NCBI GenBank assembly: GCA_026706345.1
Contig: JAPOYX010000198.1
Location: forward strand, 1-41,191
Direction: 5' to 3'
DNA from: Gemmatimonadota bacterium
Lineage (GTDB): Bacteria; JAAXHH01
Length of the DNA stretch: 41,191 nucleotides
Shown here: positions 567 to 25,406 of the stretch, piece by piece
How the letters are laid out: each line of letters opens with the position of its first letter
Position numbering within the stretch: position 1 is the first letter of the stretch
The notes under the pieces: generated by a model
The model's input: only the letters and a program-made list of their open reading frames with translations
Database searches by the model: none
What the model was told of the DNA's origin: nothing
Program-made: the position numbers and the translations under genes

Positions 567-1682
567 CTACCCGCCTGTAAGCACCTCGCGGCACCGTGCC
601 GCCACGATCCGTTCCTGGCCGTCCTGCAGGTTATGGGGATTGATGGAGAATCCTTCCTCGCCCCTTTCCTGCACGATGATCCTGGGATTGCCGTCGAGCA
701 GTGCTTTCACCGCATCGTCCCCGGATATACCGGTTTCCGACTCGATGGTAACCATGAGCTGGGGCACGGCGTAGGTTTCCTCCGGATCGAGCCGGCTGAG
801 GGAAACGTGGGGTATGCCGGCCAGTTCCTCTTCGATGTAGCGCACCTTTTCTTCCCAGCCCGTCGCATCCGCCCCATGGTCCCGGTTCAGGTAGATCTCG
901 AGGGCCTTGATGAACGCGAAGATCTCCTCCCGGCTCACCTTCATCGGCCGGCCGACCGTCGCGAAGGGTGTTCCGTTCACCGCGCAGGCGCTGATCAGGT
1001 CCTTCCGCCCGACAATGAGGCCCGTCGACTGCGGGCCCTGGAGGCTCTTGCCGCCGCTGAATATGACCAGGTCGGCGCCGGCCTCCGTGAACCGGGTCAG
1101 CGTGGACACCGGCGGACATTCCGAGGCGGCGTCGACGATGACGGGCACGTCCGCGGCATGGGCCATGGCCACAGTCTGTTCCAACGGGACGGCATTGGCG
1201 TTTTTGAAGTTCTTGCCCAGATAGAAGACCGCCGCCGCACGTGCTCCGTCGCCGATGGCGGCCTGCATGGCCTCCACCGGTGGACCGTCCGAATCGTCAA
1301 GTTCTATCAGCTTCGCGCCGGTCAGCCGAATGGCCTGGTCGTAGGCGATCCGGTGCGTCTTCTGGACGACCACCTCGTCACGCATGCCCGTCGTGTCCGG
1401 CAACTGGCGTATTCTGTCCTGATCCGTCCCCGTCATGCAGGCCGCGGTGGTGATGACCAGTCCGCACGCGGCGCTGGCGGTGACGTAAGCCGCTTCCACG
1501 CCGAGCATTCCTGCGACTTTCTCCCCGGCTTTCTCGTGCAGTTCGTCCAGGGGACAGAACTCCCGGGATGCCACGCGCATGGTCTCCATGATTTCCGGGT
1601 CCAGGAGGGCGCCTCCGTAACGCGTAGCCGTGCCAATGGCGTTTATGACCGGCCTAACGCCGATATCTTCATATATGCCCAT
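567..1682 (-). CDS. SelA/DgaE-like PLP-dependent enzyme
   Basis: This 371-residue fold-type I PLP enzyme belongs to the L-seryl-tRNA(Sec) selenium transferase-like group, which also contains D-glucosaminate-6-phosphate ammonia-lyase (DgaE). The opening GVRPVINAIGTATRYGG is the usual start of that group. D184 (VIVDAASE) should bind the pyridine nitrogen, and K212 in FSGGKSLQGPQSTGL is the likely Schiff-base lysine. The ATG at 1682 was chosen because a GGAAGGGG lies about 10 nt upstream and family homology begins right after it; the frame stays open to 1763. No tRNA(Sec), selB or selD is nearby, so a metabolic beta-elimination or ammonia-lyase role on a small hydroxy-amino substrate is more likely than selenocysteine synthesis. 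It lies divergent from the PhyH gene at 1838, so the two could share a control region. The substrate is unknown. Confidence 0.85.
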   Translation of the reverse strand: MGIYEDIGVRPVINAIGTATRYGGALLDPEIMETMRVASREFCPLDELHEKAGEKVAGMLGVEAAYVTASAACGLVITTAACMTGTDQDRIRQLPDTTGMRDEVVVQKTHRIAYDQAIRLTGAKLIELDDSDGPPVEAMQAAIGDGARAAAVFYLGKNFKNANAVPLEQTVAMAHAADVPVIVDAASECPPVSTLTRFTEAGADLVIFSGGKSLQGPQSTGLIVGRKDLISACAVNGTPFATVGRPMKVSREEIFAFIKALEIYLNRDHGADATGWEEKVRYIEEELAGIPHVSLSRLDPEETYAVPQLMVTIESETGISGDDAVKALLDGNPRIIVQERGEEGFSINPHNLQDGQERIVAARCREVLTGG

Positions 1683-1837
1683 GGTTGCGAACCCCTTCCC
1701 TTTCACTTGCGATGCAGGCGGCCGATCGGAAAAGCCTTGTCCCACCGGCAAATCGCACTGCATATTTTACTGTTGATTTCAAGACAGGCCTGTACTGGAA
1801 ATTGACTCCGCGCAATCTCATAATCAAGGATTAAAAC

Positions 1838-2749
1838 ATGGATTACGACGCGTCCCGCCGGTCCTTCGACTGCGAGCCGACGCTCTCGGACTCGGAGGTA
1901 CTGCGCTTCTGCAGGGACGGATACCTTCATTTCGAGGGCATCGTCCCCGACGAGATCAACCGGCGCACCTGTGATTACCTGAACGGGAAGCTCCCGATCA
2001 ATCCGTGTTACATGCCCGACGGCATGACCCGGGAAGACCTGGTTCGTATCCGCGGCACCCATGAGCCGAGTTCGATTCTGCTCGAGGACTGGTTCATCGA
2101 ACACGTCCTGCTCAACCCGGTGCTGTGCGGCGCACTGCGCTCGCTGCTTGGCCGGCACGTGGGCCTGCCCGTGCTGGTCAGCAACCACCGGGTGGAGTGT
2201 CCCGAAGGTCCGCAGAACTGGCACCACGACGCCGATCACGTGTTCGGTCCGGAGGTCCATTTCGTCGAGGTGTTTTATTTTCCCCAGGATACCCCGGATG
2301 AAATGGGGCCCACCGAATTCACGCCCGGTTCCCATCTCCGAACGACCCGGCGAGGGCAGGAGGAGAACGGCGTGCTGTGTTCGGGTCCCGCCGGCACCAT
2401 CGGCCTGCATTCGCAGAGCATCCTCCACCGACGGGGTACGTCCACGGCGACCGGCCTGCGGCACATGCTGAAATACAGCTACTGGCGTACGGTACCGCCC
2501 GCGCGGGACTGGATCGCCGAAGCCGATTTCGACTTCAGGCACGCCGATTACGGGGGACATGGATCCGCCCGTTACGTGGCCCACATGTTCTACTGGCTCT
2601 GTGGCAAGGGAGACGAATACCGTCTTATCGGCGGCCAGGCGTGGCCCTGGAAAACGATCAACCAGATCGGGCCCTCGTACGGTTTCGGACATACGGAGGG
2701 ATATCTTCCCGACTGGCGCGGGAACAACGACGACGATTATGCCCGGTAG
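1838..2749 (+). CDS. PhyH family Fe(II)/2-oxoglutarate dioxygenase
   Basis: The 303-residue product is a phytanoyl-CoA dioxygenase (PhyH) family oxygenase, a double-stranded beta-helix enzyme that couples 2-oxoglutarate decarboxylation to hydroxylation. The metal site is visible: H129-x-D131 in WHHDADHVFG, distal H197 in SILHRRG, and R208 a little further on as a possible 2-oxoglutarate anchor. FTPGSH at 161-166 is the usual PhyH signature. There is no signal peptide, so it acts in the cytosol. ATG at 1838 has AAGGA upstream. It is 106 bp upstream of the kinase/phospho-lyase fusion on the same strand and probably cotranscribed. It may hydroxylate or otherwise oxidise a substrate feeding that enzyme, but this is inference. 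Substrates of bacterial PhyH proteins are rarely predictable from sequence. Confidence 0.88.
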   Translation: MDYDASRRSFDCEPTLSDSEVLRFCRDGYLHFEGIVPDEINRRTCDYLNGKLPINPCYMPDGMTREDLVRIRGTHEPSSILLEDWFIEHVLLNPVLCGALRSLLGRHVGLPVLVSNHRVECPEGPQNWHHDADHVFGPEVHFVEVFYFPQDTPDEMGPTEFTPGSHLRTTRRGQEENGVLCSGPAGTIGLHSQSILHRRGTSTATGLRHMLKYSYWRTVPPARDWIAEADFDFRHADYGGHGSARYVAHMFYWLCGKGDEYRLIGGQAWPWKTINQIGPSYGFGHTEGYLPDWRGNNDDDYAR

Positions 2750-2855: not shown

Positions 2856-5800
2856 TTGTCCGTCATCTCCGAAAAACGGCCCCGTTTCACGCCTGAAGAG
2901 GCCGCCGAACTCGCCCTTTCCCTGTACGGTGTGACCGGCACGCTGAGCCCATTGCCCAGCGAACGGGACCAGAATTTCCGGCTGACCGCCGATAACGAAG
3001 AGGTTTTCGTCCTGAAGATCTCCGGGGCTGGCGAGAAGCGCGGCATTCTCGAACTGCAGCACGACGCCCTCGACCACCTGGCCGGGCGGTTCGACGAAAC
3101 CGAGTGGCCGCGGGTCTGCCGGACAAAGGACGACAGCGGCATCACACGGATCGACGGGCGGAACGGACTGCGACACCTGGTCCGGATGCTCACGTACATC
3201 GACGGCTGGCCCCTGTGCGACGTCAAGCCGCACAGTCCCGGCCTGCTGCGGGACCTGGGCGTCTTTCTGGCCCGGCTTACCCGCGCATTAGCCGACTTCT
3301 CCCACGTGGAAAAACAGCCTGATCTCATCTGGAACATGGACAATGGCCCGGAAGTCGTTCATCGATTCGCCGACCTGATCCCCGACTCCGGCCGCCGCCG
3401 GCTGGTCACAGGCTTCTGCGAAGCGTACGAAAGCGCCGTCGGTCCCCATCTCGCATCGCTTCCGCGCCAGGTCATACACAACGATGCGAACGACCAGAAC
3501 GTACTGGTCCGCCTCGCCCATCCCGATGATCCCGCGTCCAGTGAACACAGGATAGCCGGACTGATCGATTTCGGCGACATGGCTCAGTCCTGCGCGCTCT
3601 ACGAGCCGGCCGTCGCCGCCGCCTATGTCATGCTCGGCAAGTCGGAGCCTCTGTCGGCCGCCGCGCACGTCGTAGCCGGGTACCATGCCGAGCACCCGTT
3701 GACGGACTTGGACCTGAAACTGCTCTACCACTGCGCCGTGATGCGGCTGTGCATGAGCGTGGCCATATCGGCCCATCAGCAAGTCGCCGAACCGGAAAAT
3801 ACCTACCTCTCCGTCAGCGAGAAGAACGCCTGGGATCTCCTCAAAAAACTCGAGGGCACGTCCCCATCCTTCGTCGAATACCTGTTTCGGGACGCCTGCG
3901 AACTGCCGCCGTGTCCGCAGACCCCGGGTATCGAAGCGTACCTTGCCTCGAAGCGCGGCAGCTTCGCGCCGGTCATGGGCCCCGACGTGGACCTTTCCAC
4001 CGCCGTCGCGTTCGATCTCAGCGTGGGCAGCCCGGACCGGGCCCTGCTGGGAGGTTCGGTCAACGCGGACGAACTTGCCGCGGATGTCTTCCGGAAAATG
4101 GAAAACGCGAAGGCAGAAGCGGGGATCGGCCGATACAACGAGGCCCGCCAGGTCTATACGGCCGATCAATTCATGCTCGACTCCGACGAGATGCCGGAAC
4201 GTCGGACCATACACCTCGGGATGGATGTTTTCCTGCCCGCCGGATCTCCGGTCTACGCCCCACTGGAGGGAAAGGTCCACAGCTTCCGGAACAACACTCA
4301 GCCGCTGGATTACGGGCCGTGCATCATTCTTGAGCACACCGCGGAAGTAACGGACGGTTCAGCAGGTTCCGCCCAGGCGCTCTACACGCTGTACGGCCAC
4401 CTGAGCGTGGAGTCGCTGACCGGTCTATACGAAGGAAAGCAGATAGAGAAAGGTGAACGGTTCGCATCCCTCGGCGACCCGACGGTCAATGGAGGCTGGC
4501 CGCCCCACCTGCACTTTCAGATCGTCACGGACATGCTTGGCAACGCGGGAGACTTCCCCGGCGTGGGAGGACCGAGCCAGCGGAACGTCTGGCTGAGCCT
4601 GTCTCCGGATCCGAACGTCATCCTGGGCGTACCCGCGGAGGTATTTCCACGGGAGCAACGGACTACACGGGAGATCCTTGCATCCCGCCGCCACCATATC
4701 GGCAGGTCCCTCAGCATCTCCTACCGGCGTCCCCTGAAGATTGTCCGGGGCCACATGCAGTACCTGTACGACGATGAAGGACGCGCGTTTCTCGACGCCG
4801 TGAACAACGTGCCCCACGTGGGGCACAGCCATCCGGAGGTGGTTCGGGCCGCCCAGCGTCAGATGACGGTGCTGAACACCAACACCCGCTACCTCCACGA
4901 CAATCTCGTCGATTACGCCGAACGCCTCTGCACGAAGCTGCCCGACCCCCTCAGCGTATGCTTCTTCGTGAATTCAGGCAGCGAGGCGAACGACCTCGCC
5001 CTCCGCCTGGCGCGGAGTCATACCGGACAACGCGACCTGCTCATCCTGGACGGGGCCTATCACGGCAACCTGACGTCATTGATCGATATCAGTCCATACA
5101 AGTTCGACGGACCGGGGGGTGACGGTGCGCCGTCCCACGTACACAAAACGCCTCTGCCCGACCCCTACCGTGGTCCGTACAAAGGTTATTCGCCGGAAAC
5201 GGGTGCGTGGTACGCGGAGCACGTACGCGAACGTATCGATTCGCTCGCGGAACACGACCGTGGCCTCAGCGCCTTCATCGCCGAGTCCCTGCCCGGTTGC
5301 GGCGGACAGATCGTACTGCCGGACGGATATTTCAGATCGGTGTTCCACCAGGTGCGCGAAGCGGGCGGCGTGTGCATCGCCGACGAGGTACAGGTGGGAT
5401 TCGGACGCGTGGGTTCGCACTTCTGGGGATTCGAGACCCAGGACGCGGTACCGGACATCGTCACCCTGGGAAAGCCTATCGGCAACGGCCACCCGCTGGG
5501 CGCCGTGGTTACCACCCCCGAGATCGCGGGCGCTTTCGACAACGGCATGGAGTATTTCAACACCTTCGGGGGGAATCCCGTCTCCTGCGCCATCGGCCTG
5601 GCGGTGCTGGACGTCATCGAGAAAGAAGGCCTGCAGGCCAATGCCCTGGAGGTGGGCGGCTACCTGATGGAGGGACTCCGCGCCCTGGCGCCGGACCACC
5701 CGATCATCGGCGACGTCCGCGGCATGGGGCTCTACGTGGGCGTGGAACTCGTGCTGGACCGCGACACGCTGGAGCCGGGCGGACACCAGGCCTCCTACGT

Positions 5801-5972
5801 GGCCAACCGGATGCGGGACCACGGGGTGCTGATCAGCACCGACGGCCCCCTGCACAACGTCCTGAAGATCAAGCCGCCCCTGGTCTTCACCCGGGAGAAC
5901 GCCGACTATCTCCTGCACTGTCTGGGCAAGGTACTGAAAGAAGACTACCTGCGGAATCGGTCCCGGTCCTAG
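2856..5972 (+). CDS. Kinase - M23 domain - class III aminotransferase-fold phospho-lyase fusion
   Basis: This is a 1038-residue three-part protein. Residues 1-345 are an APH/hydroxylysine-kinase-like (AGPHD1/HYKK) kinase with HNDANDQN (catalytic D210, N215) and IDFGD (D238). Residues about 445-595 are an M23/LytM fold with H453-xxx-D457, YGHL (H515) and H551-L-H553, all expected zinc-site residues. Residues about 615-1035 are a class III aminotransferase fold with NSGSEAN at 706-712, D843 (IADEV) and Schiff-base K873 (TLGKPIGNG). The last part resembles the phospho-lyases ETNPPL and PHYKPL, which eliminate phosphate and ammonia from O-phosphoethanolamine or 5-phosphohydroxylysine. Kinase plus phospho-lyase in one chain implies phosphorylate-then-eliminate chemistry on an amino alcohol. 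The nearby ALDH7 favours hydroxylysine. There is no signal peptide, so the M23 part sits in the cytosol and its role is unclear. TTG at 2856 follows AGAAGG. Confidence 0.9.
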
Positions 5973-6838
5973 AGCATCACGCCCCCCACCAGATTGTTCC
6001 CCACGTAGACGCCGCGGTAGAGCGTCTGGCGCAGGGGCGGCATGGAGGCGAGCAGCTCCGGATGGGGATCCCAGTTGTGCCACCTGGAGTTGACGGAGTT
6101 GTAGCAGCTGAAAATGGCGACGCGCGGATACTTCTCGCTGACCCACGGCCTTCCGCTGTGCGTCAGGGCCTCGGTGAAGAACATCAGCGATCCAGCCGGA
6201 CAGGTATATGTATCCCAGATCGGCGAGTCCGGCGACTGGATGGAGGACGGCGTGGGAAAGACGGACTTGTGGCTGCCGGTTACCAGGAGCGTGCCGTTCC
6301 CCTCCTCCACCGGGTTCAACTCCCAGACCACCCGGGTCAGCGCGGAGTTGGCCTTCCCGGGAATGCAGCGGTAGAGATGGGAGTCGCCGGGGAGCCGCAG
6401 CATGCCGTTCCCGTTGTGGGGCCCGAACTCGCCGTCTCCGGCTTCCCGGTAGAACAGAGTGGCCGATTCCTGCCTGAAACCGTAGCAGATCTGGTTGGAC
6501 AGGCCGGGATAGGCCAGGAATTCGTTCATGAACCCCACCACCCGCGGATGATCCGTCAGGCTTTGCAGCGGACCGCCGAGCGCCGACCGCTCTCGTTCAG
6601 GTATGGATTCCGGATCATGGTGCAGTTGCAGGCAGAACGCCCGCATCTCCGCACATTCGGCTTCGGAAAGCACCCCGGGGATCAAAAGCCAGCCGTCCTT
6701 GTCGAACAGGTACTTCTGTTCGTCCGTCGGCGGGATCACGTCCCGACCGTCGGCGTTCACCCTGGTCAGATCGGCCTGGTTCTCATCCAGGCGCGCGCCC
6801 AGGTTCTTGTCGATGATAAACGCTCCGTTGGATGACAT
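5969..6838 (-). CDS. PhyH family dioxygenase with altered metal motif
   Basis: The 289-residue product is a PhyH-type oxygenase. The fold is recognisable from FDKDGWLLIPGVLSEAEC near residue 45, the jelly-roll strand LLVTGSHKSVF and the distal H227 in ALTHSGRPW. The usual HxD metal motif reads H141-N-G-N144 (GPHNGNGML), with no acidic residue at the expected place. The enzyme may therefore bind iron differently (compare halogenases that lack the carboxylate) or be inactive as a hydroxylase. The ATG at 6838 has GGGAGG about 8 nt upstream. It lies 36 bp after the ALDH7 gene on the same strand, so the two are likely one operon. Its TAG overlaps the TAG of the convergent fusion gene in a shared CTAG (5969-5972). 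Confidence 0.83.
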   Translation of the reverse strand: MSSNGAFIIDKNLGARLDENQADLTRVNADGRDVIPPTDEQKYLFDKDGWLLIPGVLSEAECAEMRAFCLQLHHDPESIPERERSALGGPLQSLTDHPRVVGFMNEFLAYPGLSNQICYGFRQESATLFYREAGDGEFGPHNGNGMLRLPGDSHLYRCIPGKANSALTRVVWELNPVEEGNGTLLVTGSHKSVFPTPSSIQSPDSPIWDTYTCPAGSLMFFTEALTHSGRPWVSEKYPRVAIFSCYNSVNSRWHNWDPHPELLASMPPLRQTLYRGVYVGNNLVGGVML

Positions 6839-6874
6839 GCGTATTCCTCCCTGTGGTTGATTTGAGAAGTGCGG

Positions 6875-8413
6875 TCAGTCACCGTCTGATCCGACGGTGT
6901 CGAATTCGATTCCCTGGGCCAGCGGGAGATCGGTGGACCAGTTGACGGTATTGGTCTGGCGGCGCATGTAGGCTTTCCAGGCGTCCGAGCCCGATTCGCG
7001 GCCGCCGCCCGTCTCCTTCTCGCCGCCGAAGGCCCCGCCGATCTCGGCGCCGGACGTGCCGATGTTCACGTTTGCGATGCCGCAGTCCGAGCCCGTCGCG
7101 GAGAGAAACCGCTCCGCCTCGCGCAGGCTGTCGGTGAAGATCGCGCTGGAAAGCCCCTGGGGCACGTCGTTGTGGAGGTCGATGGCCTCGTCCAGGGTTT
7201 CATACTCCAGGATATACAGAATCGGGGCGAAGGTCTCCTGTTTCACGATAGCCGACTGGGCGGGCATGCGTATGATGGTCGGTTCGACGAAGTTCGGTCC
7301 CAGGTCCGGTCGGTGTTTCCCGCCGATGACGACCTCGCCGCCCTCGGCCTTCGCCTGCTCGATAGCCTGCATCATGTCGTCCACCGCGTCGGCCGTGACC
7401 AGCGGTCCCATGAGCGTACCGTCGTCGACGGGATCGCCCATCGGCACCTGCGCGTAAGCGCGGGCCAATCGATCGATCAGCGTCGCCGTCATGCGCTTGT
7501 GCCCGATGATGCGGCGTGTCGAGGTGCACCGTTGTCCCGCCGTCCCCACGGCGCCGAAGACGATGCCGGGCACGGCGAGTTCGAGGTCGGCGTTTTCGGT
7601 GACGACGATCGCGTTGTTGCCGCCCAGCTCCAGTATGCTGCGACCGAACCGGGAAGCGACCCGTGCGGCCACGGTCTTTCCCGTCGCGGTCGAACCCGTG
7701 AAGGATACGAGCGGTATGCGTTCGTCATCGAGGATGAGATTGCCCACGTCACTGCCGCGGCCGATGGCCAGGTTGAATACGCCGTCCACCCCGTGGTCGG
7801 CCATGACCCGGTTGCACAGGTGCTGCGTGGCCACGGCCGTCAGCGGCGTCTGACCGCTCGGTTTCCACACGGTGACGTCGCCGCACACCGAAGCCAGAGA
7901 AGCATTCCACGACCAGACCGCCACGGGGAAATTGAAGGCGGTGATGATGCCGATCACGCCCAGGGGATGCCACTGCTCGCTCATGCGGTGACTCGGCCGC
8001 TCGCTCGCGATGGTCAGTCCATACAACTGGCGGGAAAGCCCCACGGCGAAATCGCAGATGTCGATCATCTCCTGGACCTCCCCCATGCCCTCCACGCGGA
8101 TCTTGCCCATCTCCAGGGAGACGAGTTCGCCCAGCGGTTCCTTGTACGCCCGCAGGATGTTGCCCAGGTCCCTGACCATGTCGCCCCGTTTCGGCGCGGG
8201 CAGCGCTCGCCAGGAATCGAAGGAGACGCGGGCGTGTTCGACCACCCGGTCATAGACCTCCGGAGTCGCCTGCCGCACGCCCGCGATCGGTTCGCCGGAT
8301 GTCGGGTTGTACGACGTCAGGATGGGTCCCTCCCCGTGTATCCAGCCGTCCATCCCCGTACAGGCTCCGGCGTTCAACGCTTCGATGTTCAGTTTTTCAA
8401 GCAGTGCCTTCAT
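6875..8413 (-). CDS. ALDH7-type aldehyde dehydrogenase (2-aminoadipate semialdehyde dehydrogenase-like)
   Basis: The 512-residue NAD-dependent aldehyde dehydrogenase closely matches the ALDH7A1/antiquitin subgroup. Catalytic residues are N161 (AFNFP), E262 (LELGGNN) and C296 (GQRCTSTR). The subgroup signature is the C-terminal run NVNIGTSGAEIGGAFGGEK followed by TGGGRESGSDAWK and LPLAQGIEF. Known members oxidise 2-aminoadipate 6-semialdehyde (in equilibrium with piperideine-6-carboxylate) in lysine and hydroxylysine breakdown; some also accept betaine aldehyde or lipid aldehydes. ATG at 8413 is preferred over the GTG at 8440 because GGAG lies 8 nt upstream. It is 23 bp behind the ANT(6)-like gene and 36 bp ahead of a PhyH gene. 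Its nearness to the phospho-lyase fusion suggests that it takes the product of that enzyme. Confidence 0.92.
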   Translation of the reverse strand: MKALLEKLNIEALNAGACTGMDGWIHGEGPILTSYNPTSGEPIAGVRQATPEVYDRVVEHARVSFDSWRALPAPKRGDMVRDLGNILRAYKEPLGELVSLEMGKIRVEGMGEVQEMIDICDFAVGLSRQLYGLTIASERPSHRMSEQWHPLGVIGIITAFNFPVAVWSWNASLASVCGDVTVWKPSGQTPLTAVATQHLCNRVMADHGVDGVFNLAIGRGSDVGNLILDDERIPLVSFTGSTATGKTVAARVASRFGRSILELGGNNAIVVTENADLELAVPGIVFGAVGTAGQRCTSTRRIIGHKRMTATLIDRLARAYAQVPMGDPVDDGTLMGPLVTADAVDDMMQAIEQAKAEGGEVVIGGKHRPDLGPNFVEPTIIRMPAQSAIVKQETFAPILYILEYETLDEAIDLHNDVPQGLSSAIFTDSLREAERFLSATGSDCGIANVNIGTSGAEIGGAFGGEKETGGGRESGSDAWKAYMRRQTNTVNWSTDLPLAQGIEFDTVGSDGD

Positions 8414-8436
8414 CTTCGATGCTCCAGTGTTTGGGT

Positions 8437-9297
8437 TCACACGAAATCCGCGGCGTCCCGGTCCAGCCGCCTGATCTTCCCCATGTACGCCGTGACGCGC
8501 CGGTCGGTTTCATGAGGATAGTCGAAATCCAACCCGTCGGCGACGGTGACGGCAAGACGCCGGAACAGCCGGGTCGCATTGAACAGGGCATCCCAGTTCT
8601 GATCCAGGTCCGCACCGGAATACGTGGATTCGATTTCCGCCCATGTCCCGGGGTCCAGGTAACGCTTGAACCAGCGGCCGTGTTTGTTGGTCGTAACCGA
8701 CCAGTCGTTTTTCATGCCGATATGCCATTCGATGACTTTTTCAAGAAAGGGGGAATGGACCTTTCTGTTCATGTGCTTTGCCCAGTAGAGCTCATCGCGC
8801 CACAGGGCCTTGGCCACGTAGATGATGTCCCACCAGAAATCGGCCACCAGTTCGTCATATTCGTCCTTCGAAGGTCTTTGAACGTGGTAGGCGCTGTGAT
8901 AGGGCAGTATGGGGTTCTTTACTATCCGGTCCTTGTCCAGCAGCACCCGGTAAGGTTCGGGCTCGCCGTTGAGGTCGTGCATGGATTCGGCATCCGCGAC
9001 ACTCCAGTCGATCCGGATGCCATCGTCATAGATCACCATGCGGCCTATCCTGCCATCATCAAACAAGGTTGGCGAGGGTGGCGAGCGCGTCATCACGGAT
9101 CCGAACGCTTCCAGCCAGTGATCGTCCCGTTTGTAGGGCTCCTGATCCCTGACGTACACGATCACGTCGTAGTCCGACAACAGATCGACCGTATCGTTTC
9201 CATCGACCCGGCCACTCGACAGGACCAGTCCCCTGATCTGATCGTCCGCTTCCGCCCAGCGTTGAATCTCATCGAAAACTTCCGACGGCTTGCGCAT
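8437..9297 (-). CDS. ANT(6)/AadK-like nucleotidyltransferase
   Basis: The 286-residue product belongs to the aminoglycoside 6-adenylyltransferase (streptomycin adenylyltransferase) family, of typical length. The nucleotidyltransferase signature is LVLSSGRVDG followed by LLSDYDVIVYV, with D42 and D44 as likely metal ligands; IRIDWSVAD supplies the probable third acid. The family's GSR triad reads SSGR here. The C-terminal half has the aromatic-rich helices of the family (ADFWWDIIYVAKALWRDELY, KWFKRYL-like GRWFKRYL). Family members transfer AMP to streptomycin, but chromosomal homologues in uncultured bacteria may have other substrates. ATG at 9297 has GGAG about 9 nt upstream. It sits between an FG-GAP protein and an ALDH in a tight run of genes, without integron or transposon signs, which argues against a mobile resistance cassette. 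Confidence 0.82.
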   Translation of the reverse strand: MRKPSEVFDEIQRWAEADDQIRGLVLSSGRVDGNDTVDLLSDYDVIVYVRDQEPYKRDDHWLEAFGSVMTRSPPSPTLFDDGRIGRMVIYDDGIRIDWSVADAESMHDLNGEPEPYRVLLDKDRIVKNPILPYHSAYHVQRPSKDEYDELVADFWWDIIYVAKALWRDELYWAKHMNRKVHSPFLEKVIEWHIGMKNDWSVTTNKHGRWFKRYLDPGTWAEIESTYSGADLDQNWDALFNATRLFRRLAVTVADGLDFDYPHETDRRVTAYMGKIRRLDRDAADFV

Positions 9298-12117: not shown

Positions 12118-13371
12118 CTACGCATCGAACAGACTCAAGTTCTCCTGTGATCGGCCGGAGGCGCTATCCACCATGGCATCAAGAATGCCGAGGATATCGC
12201 GCGCCACGGGCGTTCGCCGGTACCTGTACACCTCGCCGGGAATATCCGTCGATGCTTCTTCATCCACACCGAGCTCCGCGGAAATCGCCAGGATCATGTT
12301 GGGGGGACCGTACCTGCTCAGCAGGTCCAGGCGCGTCCGCACGCCTCCGGAGCGCCAATAACCGAGGAAGTCCAAGTATACCCTGGTACCGGTCGGGGGA
12401 TGGGTAAAAACATATTCAGGCACCAGCACACCCTGACCGCCCAAGTCGACGACATCCGTCCCGGCCGCTATGCGCCAGACCGAATTCAACCGGGCGAAGC
12501 GCTCTTCGAGCCAGACCACCTCCTCGGGTACCCACTGGCCCGCGGTAGGACCGATCGGTTTCAGGCCCGTTTCGGGGGTCAGGCGAAACACCCCCTTCCG
12601 GCGACGGGCGCCCCATACGACGGAAGCGGCGACGCGCCAGTGCGCGCAGTGCAGGACCGCGGGAAGAAACTGGGCGATCTGCAGACCGTAGCGCTGGGAC
12701 GACTTGAAGAGCGACATGGGGCCGTCTATGCGTATGTGGTATTCCCCCGGTCCCGTCTGTCGGATCTCGTGGAGGAGCCGGAAGAACTTCATCTTCCGGA
12801 AAAGGTCCCGGTAGCGGGCCGGACTTTCCCCCTCGATGTACAGGTCCAGTTCCGACGCCCGCAGCAGGACGGCCTGCGCGAGGGCGACATTATACCGGCT
12901 CAACAGCCATTCGGCCTTACAGGGCTTGAAAGATTCCAGCCGCTCGGCCGCCCTGAGATCGGCGTAGAAGGCGCCTTCGACTGCCTCCGCGCCTATGGCG
13001 GCCGACTTTGCCGCTTCGGTCAGAATGGCTTCCCGGTCGATACGGACCTGCTCTGTGTCCCGGTACGCCGCGGCCGCGCCTTCGAATATCCGCCGGCGCA
13101 GTTCCACCGGGTCTACGGGCGAAGCAGACGCGAACGTACAGCGATCTTTCAGCAACTTGCTCAGTCCGCGGTGAAAAAGGAATCCCGTCCCGGCGCCCGT
13201 CGTATCCGTCAGCTCCTCGTCGAGTTCCTGCCGGGTCCCGCCTTCATGGCGCTCGAAGATGCGGATCAGCGTTTCGGCAACCCCGAGGTGATCCCGGTCC
13301 AGCTCATCGATATAGGGAAGATGGATCTCGTCCTTGCGGAACCGGACGCGGAGCAGGTCGCCCGTCAGCAT
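12118..13371 (-). CDS. DUF790 nuclease, Bax1-like XPB partner
   Basis: The 417-residue protein is of the DUF790 family, known in archaea as Bax1, the endonuclease partner of the XPB helicase. The N-terminus (MLTGDLLRVRFRKDEIHLPY) and the RYNVALAQAVLLRAS segment are typical. The C-terminal part has the PD-(D/E)XK-like nuclease order, with VPEYVF then VYLDFLGYW as likely core. ATG at 13371 was chosen because it lies one base after the TGA of the upstream XPB gene, with GGGAGG just ahead. The open frame extends to 13467 but would overlap the helicase. The pairing with XPB is decisive for the call. In archaea the pair unwinds and incises at damaged DNA bubbles; a similar repair role here is inferred. 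Confidence 0.88.
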   Translation of the reverse strand: MLTGDLLRVRFRKDEIHLPYIDELDRDHLGVAETLIRIFERHEGGTRQELDEELTDTTGAGTGFLFHRGLSKLLKDRCTFASASPVDPVELRRRIFEGAAAAYRDTEQVRIDREAILTEAAKSAAIGAEAVEGAFYADLRAAERLESFKPCKAEWLLSRYNVALAQAVLLRASELDLYIEGESPARYRDLFRKMKFFRLLHEIRQTGPGEYHIRIDGPMSLFKSSQRYGLQIAQFLPAVLHCAHWRVAASVVWGARRRKGVFRLTPETGLKPIGPTAGQWVPEEVVWLEERFARLNSVWRIAAGTDVVDLGGQGVLVPEYVFTHPPTGTRVYLDFLGYWRSGGVRTRLDLLSRYGPPNMILAISAELGVDEEASTDIPGEVYRYRRTPVARDILGILDAMVDSASGRSQENLSLFDA

Positions 13372-13372
13372 G

Positions 13373-14761
13373 TCACCGCCTCCCTGCCGGGTTTTTCCGG
13401 TAGGCGCTGTGCTGTCTCCGCCGGGAACTCGCGTACTCCTCGCCCGTCCGTTCGGCCACGAGCTCATACAGCACCGCGTGCTTGCCCTCGACGCGCCGAA
13501 GGATCCGGCCGAGACGCTGTACGTGTTCCCTTACGCTGCCGGAACCGGACAGCACCACGGCCACATTGGCTTCGGGGACGTCCACGCCTTCGTTCAACAC
13601 ACGGGAGGTGACCAGGAAGGGATAATCGCCGGCGTTGAACGCCGCCAGGATTTCCCGGCGCTCCTTCACCTTGGTCTGGTGCGTGATGGCGGGAACGAGG
13701 AACCGGCGCGAGATCCGGTATACCGTTTCGTTGTCGCTGGTGAAGATGAGCATGCGATCGCGGCGGTGCTGCCGGATCAGCCGCTCCAGGACGCGCAGCT
13801 TGGCCTGCGAACCCTGGGCGATGGCCTTCTGGGTCCGGTAGGCCGTGAAGGCCCGGCGCCCTTCTTCGCTGCGGGACGTCGCCGACAGGAATCGGACCCA
13901 CCCGTTGGGACCGGACAGCGAGATCCTGTTATTGTCCAGGAACGTACGATAGATATCCCGCTCCTCCTGGTACTCGATCCGTTCTTCCGGTGAAAGCCGG
14001 ACGTTGATCTTGATCGTCTCATAGCCGGACAGATACTCCCCGCTCAGGGAACGGATCTCCTGGCGGTAGACCGTCTCCCCGACCGCGTCCAGCAAGAGGT
14101 GTTCCGCGCCGTCCTCCCGCTCGAGGGTGGCCGTCAGCCCGAGGCGGTACGGCGCCAGCGACAGGTCCGCGGTCATGAGGTAGGACGGCCCGGGCAGGTG
14201 GTGGCATTCGTCGAAAATCACCAGTCCGAACTGGTGGCCGAGCCGCTCCATGTGCAGGTACGCGGAATCGTAGGTGGACACGGTAACCGGTTCGATATCG
14301 TAATACCCCCCGCCGATCAGGCCCACTTCGACGTCGAACTGGCTGGAGATCACGCCGTACCACTGTTGCATCAGGTCGATGGTGGGAACGACCACCAGGG
14401 TGCTGCGCTGGACGCGGGCCATGGACATGAGGGCGACGAAAGTCTTGCCCGACCCGGTCGGCAACACGACCACACCACGGCCTCCAGCCTTCCACCAGGC
14501 GTCCACGGCTTCCTGCTGGTAAGGAAAGGGGGACCGGTCAGACTGGAGGGAAAGGTCCAGTTTCCCGTAGGAACGGGCGTCGTCCCGGTACGGGATGTCC
14601 CGGTCGGCGAGCAGCGTGATGATATCGCGGTAATGCCGCGCCGGAGCGCGGTACAGGGCCACTCGCTGGTCAAACGCGCAACCGGGCAACGACAACCCGT
14701 CCACCTGGTCCCGGTCGCCGTGCACGAGGATGGTCCCACGGTCGAATTCGAGTCTGAGCAT
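13373..14761 (-). CDS. XPB-family DNA helicase
   Basis: The 462-residue SF2 helicase belongs to the XPB/Rad25 group. Motifs in order are PYQQEAVDAWW, Walker A LPTGSGKT (100-107), TTL-like motif VVVPTIDL, DECHH at 184-188, TAT at 210-212 followed by R215-E216-D217 (the RED motif of XPB), and motif VI QRLGRILRR near the C-terminus. The short N-terminal ~75 residues match the damage-recognition domain of archaeal-type XPB rather than the long eukaryotic one. Its stop codon is one base from the start of the Bax1-like nuclease, so the two are translationally coupled. ATG at 14761 has TAAGG about 9 nt upstream. The function is DNA unwinding at lesions or bubbles, probably in nucleotide excision repair. 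Confidence 0.92.
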   Translation of the reverse strand: MLRLEFDRGTILVHGDRDQVDGLSLPGCAFDQRVALYRAPARHYRDIITLLADRDIPYRDDARSYGKLDLSLQSDRSPFPYQQEAVDAWWKAGGRGVVVLPTGSGKTFVALMSMARVQRSTLVVVPTIDLMQQWYGVISSQFDVEVGLIGGGYYDIEPVTVSTYDSAYLHMERLGHQFGLVIFDECHHLPGPSYLMTADLSLAPYRLGLTATLEREDGAEHLLLDAVGETVYRQEIRSLSGEYLSGYETIKINVRLSPEERIEYQEERDIYRTFLDNNRISLSGPNGWVRFLSATSRSEEGRRAFTAYRTQKAIAQGSQAKLRVLERLIRQHRRDRMLIFTSDNETVYRISRRFLVPAITHQTKVKERREILAAFNAGDYPFLVTSRVLNEGVDVPEANVAVVLSGSGSVREHVQRLGRILRRVEGKHAVLYELVAERTGEEYASSRRRQHSAYRKNPAGRR

Positions 14762-24620: not shown

Positions 24621-25406
24621 ATGCCCGATTACTCATATCCCGATCTGAAGGGCATCGGGAAAGACTACGAACGGGATGGATTCGTAATCGTCCGAAATGT
24701 TCTTCCGGCCGACCTTGTTCGAGAAGTCGACCGGCATATCGACTGGCTGATGGACCGCCATCCCGAACTGCCTCCCGAATCGCTGGGACACTGGCTCATT
24801 GCCGGCGATCCCTTCTGGGTCCGTTTCCTCAGCGACCGCAACCTGCTGGACGTGGCGGAAGCCCTGGTCGGTCCGAACGTGGCATTCTTCGCGGCGGACT
24901 ACATCTGCAAGCCGCCCCGAAGGGGCAAGGGCGTCCTGTGGCATCAGGACGGACACTACTGGCCCCTCGAGCCGATGGAAGTCATCACCATCTGGTTCGC
25001 CATCACCGCTTCGCTGCCCTCCAACGGTTGTGTTCGCGTGATCCCCGGATCGCACAGATCCGGTCTGCACAGCCACTCACCGGAGAAAAAAGACAACTAC
25101 ATCCTCAACCGGGCCGATCCGGACGCGTTCGACGAAAACCAGGCGGTCGACCTGGTGCTGTCGCCCGGTGACGTCTCGGTCCATCACCCGCTGCTGTTGC
25201 ATGGTTCCAATCCGAACGAGAGCGACGCGTGGAGGCGGGGCGGCTCGATCCAGTACATGCCCGCGACGACGAAGGTCACGCGGGAATGGCCCTGTCTTTT
25301 CCTGTTCCGCGGCACTCCCGTCGAGGGGATCAATACCTACCGGCGGTTTCCCGCGTACGAGACCGGAACGCACATGGCGTTTTCCGGTTGCGAGGCCTGG
25401 CCGTAG
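24621..25406 (+). CDS. PhyH family Fe(II)/2-oxoglutarate dioxygenase
   Basis: The 261-residue enzyme is a canonical PhyH-type oxygenase with an intact iron site: H108-x-D110 in VLWHQDGHYW, distal H194 in LLLHGSNPN, and R206 in RRGGSIQYMP as probable 2-oxoglutarate anchor. It opens with YERDGFVIVRNVL, the usual first strand, and has IPGSHRSGLH at 141-150. The WHQDGHYWPLEP pattern is that of the ectoine-hydroxylase/PhyH-like group that acts on small soluble substrates, but that does not fix the substrate. ATG at 24621 has GAGG about 9 nt upstream. It is divergent from the solute-binding protein gene across 154 bp. Uptake and oxidation of one compound by these two products is possible but unproven. 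Confidence 0.9.
   Translation: MPDYSYPDLKGIGKDYERDGFVIVRNVLPADLVREVDRHIDWLMDRHPELPPESLGHWLIAGDPFWVRFLSDRNLLDVAEALVGPNVAFFAADYICKPPRRGKGVLWHQDGHYWPLEPMEVITIWFAITASLPSNGCVRVIPGSHRSGLHSHSPEKKDNYILNRADPDAFDENQAVDLVLSPGDVSVHHPLLLHGSNPNESDAWRRGGSIQYMPATTKVTREWPCLFLFRGTPVEGINTYRRFPAYETGTHMAFSGCEAWP

What the first reader, a model, noticed from the sequence alone, without database searches (positions are those of the whole stretch)
2856..8413. Possible complete hydroxylysine-to-aminoadipate module
The fusion carries a hydroxylysine-kinase-like domain and a PHYKPL/ETNPPL-like phospho-lyase domain. In the known pathway 5-phosphohydroxylysine is converted to 2-aminoadipate semialdehyde, phosphate and ammonia. 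An ALDH7A1-type dehydrogenase, whose known substrate is that semialdehyde, lies within 1 kb on the opposite strand. Two PhyH oxygenases flank the genes. Together they could feed and run a hydroxylysine route, perhaps on collagen-derived hydroxylysine, in an uncultured bacterium. The alternative is phosphoethanolamine, which would give acetaldehyde and would not explain the ALDH7.
Basis: partly seen in the sequence, partly recalled or inferred. Interest (0 to 1): 0.75.

Follow-up and report, generated by a model that had tools for sequence, protein, structure and literature searches.

The report
Common kinase-phospho-lyase fusion beside ALDH7
An uncultured bacterium, probably sponge-associated, carries a widespread three-domain enzyme that probably breaks down small amino alcohols, and its nearness to a lysine-pathway aldehyde dehydrogenase is weak evidence for a collagen-hydroxylysine pathway.

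Summary
The genes are really there. The dehydrogenase (6875-8440, minus strand) passes NCBI's piperidine-6-carboxylate dehydrogenase model and keeps the aminoadipate-binding residues. The proposed module is weakly supported. Fusion and ALDH7 are neighbours in 11 of 11 genomes of this Latescibacterota genus with both on one contig, but there the whole block of seven genes is conserved. Of 73 fusion loci from other lineages, 0 show ALDH7 in the stored flank. ALDH7 is over cut-off in 12 of 50 such genomes (15 with cut or split matches) against 5 of 42 unmatched background genomes (p = 0.18; 0.04 with 15). The pair is convergent, not an operon. In one fusion-bearing Marinimicrobia genome ALDH7 adjoins lysine 6-transaminase instead. 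The lyase pocket shares H654, H879 and N902 with both solved phosphoethanolamine lyases, and the ALDH7-linked genus has no pocket change of its own. Best reading: an amino-alcohol (ethanolamine-type) kinase/phospho-lyase; hydroxylysine is not excluded. Open puzzle: the M23 zinc site, kept in 85-86 of 86 aligned fusions, although one distant relative lacks the domain.

The parts
2856..5972 (+). three-domain fusion, PRK06148/NF004799 family (1038 aa)
   Evidence: ORF; NF004799 1292.7 bits over cut-off 1128
2856..3905 (+). APH-fold small-molecule kinase domain (residues 1-350); D210, N215, D238 of the usual kinase motifs (motif names recalled)
   Evidence: Pfam APH; AlphaFold mean pLDDT 94.3; N-acetylhexosamine kinase Z 28.8, homoserine kinase Z 28.4, aminopropanol kinase Z 25.9; D210, N215, D238 in 86 of 86 rows
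4209..4526 (+). M23 metallopeptidase-fold domain (residues 452-557), zinc-site residues H453, D457, H553 and nearby H551 (motif recalled)
   Evidence: Pfam 46.5 bits over 28.7; fold matches to M23/LytM enzymes; H453 85, D457 86, H551 85, H553 86 of 86 rows
4662..5945 (+). class-III PLP phospho-lyase domain (residues 603-1030), presumed Schiff-base lysine K873
   Evidence: 6TOR human ethanolamine-phosphate phospho-lyase 516.7 bits, 233 of 422 aligned positions identical; K873 86 of 86
1838..2749 (+). PhyH1 oxygenase, 106 bp upstream of the fusion on the same strand
   Evidence: Pfam PhyH 33.8 bits; spacing
5969..6838 (-). PhyH2 oxygenase, convergent with the fusion
   Evidence: Pfam PhyH 32.4 bits; kept near the fusion in sister genus G012
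6875..8440 (-). ALDH7-type L-piperidine-6-carboxylate / aminoadipate-semialdehyde dehydrogenase
   Evidence: NF050084 781.5 bits over 730; alignment to 4x0t human enzyme
8437..9297 (-). ANT(6)-like nucleotidyltransferase overlapping the ALDH7 start by 4 bp (below the cut-offs of all five ANT(6) models it matched)
   Evidence: Pfam PF04439 258.3 bits; NF033387 237.6 vs cut-off 450

Best explanation
The fusion is a self-contained amino-alcohol catabolic enzyme. Its N-terminal APH-fold kinase phosphorylates the hydroxyl of a 2-amino alcohol, most likely ethanolamine or a close analogue such as 1-amino-2-propanol. Its C-terminal PLP domain then eliminates phosphate and ammonia to give an aldehyde. 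The central M23-fold domain keeps a full zinc site; its substrate is unknown. The ALDH7 next door is an ordinary aminoadipate-semialdehyde dehydrogenase of lysine-type catabolism that lies in the same conserved block in this genus. Shown by sequence: the families, the conserved catalytic positions, the residues shared with phosphoethanolamine lyases, and the genus-restricted linkage. Inferred: the substrate, the order of steps, and independence from ALDH7.
For: Best solved relatives of the lyase are the phosphoethanolamine lyase 6TOR (516.7 bits) and the phospholyase 5G4I (340.7 bits; its phosphoethanolamine activity is recalled). Of 165 positions identical in these two, the window matches 137, including H654, H879 and N902, which vary within the fusion family (H654 in 62, H879 in 62, N902 in 52 of 86 rows). 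Among the kinase's fold matches is the solved aminopropanol kinase 6EF6 (Z 25.9, 303 residues, 3.2 A), though homoserine and N-acetylhexosamine kinases score higher (Z 28.4-28.8). The genome has no EutB match, so no other ethanolamine lyase of that kind was found. The fusion has no neighbour family that recurs in more than 5 of 78 loci across phyla, among the 30 largest clusters printed, as expected of a self-contained enzyme. ALDH7 linkage was seen only in the genus, and in Marinimicrobia G096 ALDH7 adjoins L-lysine 6-transaminase (638 bits over 520.8).
Against: Sequence cannot give the substrate. No PHYKPL or HYKK sequence was found in the tools used, so closeness to the human hydroxylysine enzymes was not measured. 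By recall, human hydroxylysine kinase is of the APH type whereas human ethanolamine kinases are of the choline-kinase type, which slightly favours hydroxylysine for the kinase half. ALDH7 lies beside the fusion in 11 of 11 genus genomes with both on one contig. With cut and split ALDH7 matches counted, co-occurrence is 15 of 50 against 5 of 42, p = 0.04.
Confidence: 0.5

Rival explanations
1. Hydroxylysine module: the fusion makes 5-phosphohydroxylysine and then aminoadipate semialdehyde, and ALDH7 oxidises it to 2-aminoadipate. The hydroxylysine comes from sponge collagen or from hydroxylation of lysine by PhyH1.
For: ALDH7 looks like a bona fide aminoadipate-semialdehyde enzyme: NF050084 781.5 over 730, and residues equivalent to human E121, R301, T303, F168, W175, G461, A462 and F468 are kept (mapping by a constant offset, mine). 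The gene pair is conserved in 11 of 11 genus genomes with both on one contig. ALDH7 occurs in 12 of 50 other fusion genomes, or 15 of 50 with cut and split matches, against 5 of 42 background genomes (p = 0.18 or 0.04). PMC9283133 (passage) states that the human paralogues AGXT2L1 and AGXT2L2 act on phosphoethanolamine and phosphohydroxylysine.
Against: 0 of 73 non-genus fusion loci have ALDH7 in the stored flank. Sister genus G012 keeps PhyH2 near the fusion but shows no ALDH7 in about 7 kb upstream or 14 kb downstream. G014, G015 and G016 have the fusion or a shorter form and no ALDH7 over cut-off, though they are 83, 85 and 59% complete. The two genes are convergent. No pocket residue is peculiar to the ALDH7-linked genus. 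M9 collagenase: one match at 21 bits, below the cut-off of 26. By recall, human PHYKPL has Ser at positions 650, 874 and 907, where the fusions have N (86 of 86), P (85 of 86) and N (85 of 86). Known bacterial 5-hydroxylysine breakdown in Pseudomonas fluorescens goes by other routes (PMC12930750, passage).
Confidence: 0.17
2. Another 2-amino alcohol or amino-sugar-like substrate: a kinase/phospho-lyase pair for a compound not yet linked to this family, with the M23 domain releasing the substrate from a conjugate.
For: M23 zinc-site residues are kept in 85-86 of 86 aligned fusions, all 10 Thorarchaeota rows included, so the domain is under selection. The kinase's top structural matches are N-acetylhexosamine and homoserine kinases. 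Several pocket classes exist within the family, for example the mostly acidobacterial Y649/L654/F879/S902 class.
Against: The window's pocket is of the phosphoethanolamine-lyase class; nothing points to a particular other substrate. G016 has a 795-codon kinase-lyase frame without the M23 domain, so the pair can do without it.
Confidence: 0.3

Closest known systems
PRK06148 / NF004799 fusion family (annotated 'hypothetical protein')
   Same: same three domains in the same order over the full length, above the curated cut-off
   Different: nothing distinctive found apart from the genus-level neighbourhood
Ethanolamine-phosphate phospho-lyase (human ETNPPL, 6TOR; Arthrobacter phospholyase, 5G4I, source recalled)
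   Same: class-III PLP lyase family, catalytic lysine, residues H654, H879, N902, N650, P874, N907
   Different: the solved chains are of 499 and 446 residues; here the lyase is fused to a kinase and an M23 domain
Human hydroxylysine kinase and 5-phosphohydroxylysine phospho-lyase (HYKK, PHYKPL; Veiga-da-Cunha 2012, not held, recalled)
   Same: same reaction types, kinase then PLP phospho-lyase
   Different: could not be compared: no sequence in the tools used; recalled PHYKPL serines are not all found in any fusion row (L094 has one of three)
Microcompartment aminopropanol kinase (6EF6)
   Same: APH-fold kinase acting on a 2-amino alcohol; such gene clusters also hold an aminotransferase-like protein (PMC6620236, passages)
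   Different: separate genes in a microcompartment locus; kinase 17% identical to the window's by structural alignment
ALDH7A1 / Pcd / NF050084 dehydrogenases
   Same: over the curated cut-off, substrate-binding residues conserved
   Different: adjacent to the fusion only in this genus, as far as was searched

Membership tests
PRK06148 (NF004799) fusion | score over curated cut-off across the full length | tested here: met
   1292.7 vs 1128 bits, residues 1-1029
class-III PLP phospho-lyase | presumed PLP lysine and aspartate kept, and phospho-lyases as best solved matches | tested here: met
   K873 and D843 in 86 of 86 rows; 6TOR and 5G4I best
phosphoethanolamine phospho-lyase | active-site-region residues common to both solved enzymes | tested here: met
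   H654, H879, N902, N650, P874, N907 shared; these are similar signs only, activity not tested
5-phosphohydroxylysine phospho-lyase (PHYKPL) | closer to PHYKPL than to ETNPPL in sequence and pocket | tested here: inconclusive
   no PHYKPL sequence in the tools used; recalled Ser at 650/874/907 not found in the window (N 86, P 85, N 85 of 86 rows)
hydroxylysine kinase (HYKK) | phosphorylates 5-hydroxylysine, GTP-preferring (recall) | not testable with these tools
   needs assay
hydroxylysine-to-aminoadipate module | linkage of fusion and ALDH7 beyond the genus | tested here: not met
   0 of 73 non-genus loci; flanks of at least 3 kb on both sides in 44 of 77 loci (the 73 plus four relatives)
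hydroxylysine-to-aminoadipate module | genome-level co-occurrence above background | tested here: inconclusive
   12 of 50 vs 5 of 42, Fisher p = 0.18; 15 of 50 with cut and split matches, p = 0.04; background not matched for lineage or genome size
ALDH7 / P6C dehydrogenase | curated cut-off and aminoadipate-binding residues | tested here: met
   781.5 vs 730 bits; residues
M23 metallopeptidase | HxxxD and HxH zinc site | tested here: met
   H453, D457, H551, H553; peptidase activity not tested

The most novel reading that the evidence does not exclude
One polypeptide takes peptide-bound hydroxylysine to aminoadipate semialdehyde. The intracellular M23 domain splits Hyl-Gly-type peptides from host collagen (M23 enzymes are known, by recall, to cut next to glycine), the kinase phosphorylates the freed hydroxylysine, the lyase eliminates phosphate and ammonia, and in this probably sponge-associated genus the neighbouring ALDH7 finishes the route. 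PhyH1 might alternatively make the hydroxylysine from lysine.
Probability: 0.05. Interest if true: 0.75.

Novelty: new member of a known kind. Interest (0 to 1): 0.33.

Why it matters
The fusion family is widespread (431 related stretches in one genome collection) yet is still named 'hypothetical protein' by NCBI's model, so assigning its substrate would annotate many genomes in many phyla. The nearly invariant M23 zinc site inside a kinase/phospho-lyase, present even in Thorarchaeota, is an unexplained combination. If hydroxylysine were the substrate, it would give a defined route for microbial use of collagen breakdown products in sponges.

Tried and rejected
Papers: Veiga-da-Cunha 2012 and an identifier I tried from memory for the 5G4I structure paper are not held. 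Searches for phosphohydroxylysine, phospho-lyases, hydroxylysine catabolism and the M23 fusion listed no paper that, from the titles and abstract starts shown, assays this bacterial fusion. Only the top rows were seen (for example 40 of 153), and the library holds only open-licence papers, so this is no proof of absence. PMC12138971 (passages) says that gene fusions can reveal functions even when both partners are uncharacterised, and lists Veiga-da-Cunha 2012 as ref. 76 directly after the gene-fusion references; the citation mark in the sentence was not visible. A paper on sponge-associated Latescibacterota, PMC12993501, has no occurrence of hydroxylysine, collagen, ethanolamine, 'lysine degradation' or phytanoyl in its main text; PMC9309667 has none of the phospho-lyase terms.

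The idea that two PhyH genes point to a feeding hydroxylase was not upheld: 111 PhyH matches in 4.49 Mb. PhyH1 has no credible solved relative (best E 0.56), PhyH2 only distant ones (best 25 bits). A search for recurrent neighbours of the fusion over 78 loci (80, less six same-genus loci, plus four from relatives) printed the 30 largest clusters: mostly lineage-bound blocks, mainly Acidobacteria, and an aldo/keto-reductase-like gene in 5 of 78 loci.

Lysine 6-transaminase in the window's genome: no match over cut-off. A saccharopine-dehydrogenase-family protein was found at C232; it has no NCBIfam match at E 1e-10, so its role as lysine 6-dehydrogenase is a guess. Kinase sequence search against solved structures: 0 matches at E 0.01, hence the fold search. 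No hydroxylysine kinase is named among the 50 rows shown of each fold search, which excludes nothing.

Full report
What is there. The fusion at 2856-5972 (+) is one open frame of 1038 codons. It is a full-length member of NCBI's PRK06148 family, NF004799, 1292.7 bits over a cut-off of 1128, matching residues 1-1029. Pfam shows three domains: APH kinase (30-277), Peptidase_M23 (452-557) and Aminotran_3 (627-1026). The dehydrogenase at 6875-8440 (-) scores 781.5 bits on the L-piperidine-6-carboxylate dehydrogenase model NF050084 (cut-off 730) and aligns over most of its length with solved ALDH7 enzymes, human ALDH7A1 included. PMC11362210 (passages) names human Glu121, Arg301, Thr303, Phe168, Trp175, Gly461, Ala462 and Phe468 as contacts of aminoadipate. 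With a constant offset of +3 (my mapping) the window has E124, R304, T306, F171, W178, G464, A465 and F471, the same residues.

Where it comes from. The nearest named relatives of the fusion in the genome collection are Candidatus Latescibacterota MAGs; two of the seven genus loci carry the record title Gemmatimonadetes. I take them to be sponge-associated from isolate labels and from literature on sponge Latescibacterota (search listing); this is recall and inference. The fusion itself is not special to them: 442 stretches matched the peptide patterns, 431 encode relatives, and the best 80 kept have titles from Chloroflexi, Acidobacteria, Aminicenantes, Thorarchaeota, Gemmatimonadetes, Rhodothermales, Marinimicrobia and others.

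Does ALDH7 belong with the fusion? Twelve genus genomes were searched (G000-G011). In 11 both genes are on one contig and adjacent; in G005 ALDH7 is on a 4 kb contig and no fusion was found. In the 10 extended stretches taken from the other genus genomes the whole block of seven genes keeps its order, including a PLP ammonia-lyase-like gene, an ANT(6)-like gene and an FG-GAP protein. So the adjacency is shared by genes with no plausible role in such a route and carries little weight. Outside the genus I did not find the link. In sister genus G012 the fusion is split over two contig ends; about 7 kb upstream and 14 kb downstream hold no ALDH7, and the fusion is followed by an aldo/keto reductase and PhyH2. 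Its ALDH7 is on another contig, with neighbours that I did not identify. G013 has both on separate contigs with only 2.2 and 2.5 kb of flank around the fusion; its ALDH7 lies beside an arginase-family gene. G014 and G015 have the fusion and G016 a shorter form, none with ALDH7 over cut-off; they are 83, 85 and 59% complete. Of the 80 genome-collection loci, 7 are of the genus and have ALDH7; of the other 73, 0 have it. Three Anaerolineae loci have a different ALDH at 36-40% identity; the one scanned scores 373.5 on NF050084. Flanks of at least 3 kb on both sides were available in 44 of 77 non-genus loci, and of at least 7 kb in 32, so many could hide a more distant ALDH7.

At genome level, 50 of the 73 non-genus genomes were searched: 12 have NF050084 over cut-off, and three more (G100, G061, G059) have cut or split matches that look real. 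Of 42 genomes of other lineages, none with a fusion over cut-off, 5 do. Fisher p is 0.18 for 12 of 50 and 0.04 for 15 of 50. But the background is unmatched: by the rounded sizes those genomes average about 2.8 Mb against 4.2 Mb, and one search listed only matches at E 1e-90 or better, so fragments there were not seen. I call this inconclusive. ALDH7 also has other partners. In Marinimicrobia G096, which carries a fusion on another contig (L126), ALDH7 is followed directly by L-lysine 6-transaminase (TIGR03251, 638 bits over 520.8). In the window's genome there is no such transaminase over cut-off, but a saccharopine-dehydrogenase-family protein (PF16653 118.4 bits; best solved match 3ABI, 86.2 bits) is present and has matches in 17 of 17 genomes G000-G016, weak in G016. 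Its function as a source of the semialdehyde is a guess.

What does the lyase act on? The two best solved relatives are phospho-lyases: 6TOR, human ethanolamine-phosphate phospho-lyase (516.7 bits; 233 of 422 aligned positions identical), and 5G4I (340.7 bits; 182 of 414), which I recall as a phosphoethanolamine lyase. In an alignment of 86 fusions (11 of the genus, 75 others; G012 and G016 were not included) plus these two, the positions around the presumed PLP lysine K873 are strongly conserved. Some vary between clades: H654 in 62, H879 in 62 and N902 in 52 of 86 rows. The window has the state found in both solved lyases at all three; a mostly acidobacterial class has Y649/L654/F879/S902. 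That these positions line the pocket is inferred from their motifs, not from coordinates. In the lyase domain the only residue fixed in the ALDH7-linked genus and found in at most one other row is C1022, which that one row, the sister L078, shares. So no change in the enzyme accompanies the ALDH7 neighbourhood. From memory, human PHYKPL has serine where the fusions have N650 (86 of 86), P874 (85 of 86; one row has S) and N907 (85 of 86; one row has T); this is a lead, not a test, since no tool used held PHYKPL. [quoted passage not shown]

The kinase. A model of residues 1-350 (mean pLDDT 94.3) matches N-acetylhexosamine kinase (Z 28.8, 318 residues, 2.9 A), homoserine kinase (Z 28.4, 301 residues, 2.9 A) and the microcompartment aminopropanol kinase 6EF6 (Z 25.9, 303 residues, 3.2 A). 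PMC6620236 (passages) describes a 1-amino-2-propanol gene cluster with an APH-family phosphotransferase and an aminotransferase-like protein, and itself proposes other reactions for them. The fold does not decide the substrate.

The M23 domain. Zinc-site residues H453 (85 of 86), D457 (86), H551 (85) and H553 (86) are kept, and all 10 Thorarchaeota rows have the four. The model (mean pLDDT 88.2) matches M23/LytM structures (6SMK E 2.3e-6, LytM, lysostaphin). The fusion has no obvious signal peptide (my reading of the sequence), and Thorarchaeota by general knowledge lack murein. Against a need for the domain: G016 has a 795-codon frame with kinase and lyase joined directly and no M23 part. What the domain cuts, if anything, is unknown. 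I regard this as the most interesting open question here.

Verdict. The 'complete module' is a plausible reading of one neighbourhood that was not found outside the genus and is not favoured by the lyase residues. I commit to an amino-alcohol (ethanolamine-type) kinase/phospho-lyase at about 0.5, hydroxylysine at about 0.17, and another substrate at about 0.3.

Noticed in passing
G000 whole genome; window 1838-2749, 5969-6838, 24621-25406: The genome has 111 PhyH matches, about one per 40 kb, a large expansion; among 14 control genomes only one has any.
   Followed up: partly
L054 (G016:C35), frame of 795 codons on the minus strand: A relative joins the kinase and lyase domains directly, without the M23 domain.
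   Followed up: partly
window 5969-6838 and its orthologues: PhyH2 shows HNGN where an HxD iron motif might be expected (motif recalled); the Asp may be missing. The alignment there is poor, so this is uncertain.
   Followed up: no
fusion family, alignment of 86 rows: Several pocket classes exist among the fusions (for example Y649/L654/F879/S902, mostly Acidobacteria), which may mean different substrates.
   Followed up: partly
L087 11088-12380, L126 6938-7927, L135 6839-7912, L089 4049-4879, L052 1189-2175: An aldo/keto-reductase-like gene lies near the fusion in 5 of 78 loci, of four phyla by record title or kinship, a possible handler of the aldehyde product; three of the five were scanned and only distantly match named reductases or Kv-beta.
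   Followed up: partly
L142, L145, L149: In three Anaerolineae loci an ALDH and a 225-codon ORF without an NCBIfam match lie upstream of the fusion, and an FAD oxidoreductase distantly related to aminophosphonate and pipecolate oxidases lies downstream (only L142 was scanned).
   Followed up: partly
window 8437-9297: An ANT(6)-like nucleotidyltransferase is tightly coupled to ALDH7 by a 4 bp overlap; it falls below the cut-offs of all five ANT(6) models matched and need not act on aminoglycosides.
   Followed up: no
window 567-1763: A DgaE/SelA-like PLP ammonia lyase (197.9 bits on TIGR01437, cut-off 385.3) is divergent from PhyH1 with 74 bp between them.
   Followed up: no
window 12118-14761: A DUF790 protein and an XPB-like helicase are adjacent.
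   Followed up: no
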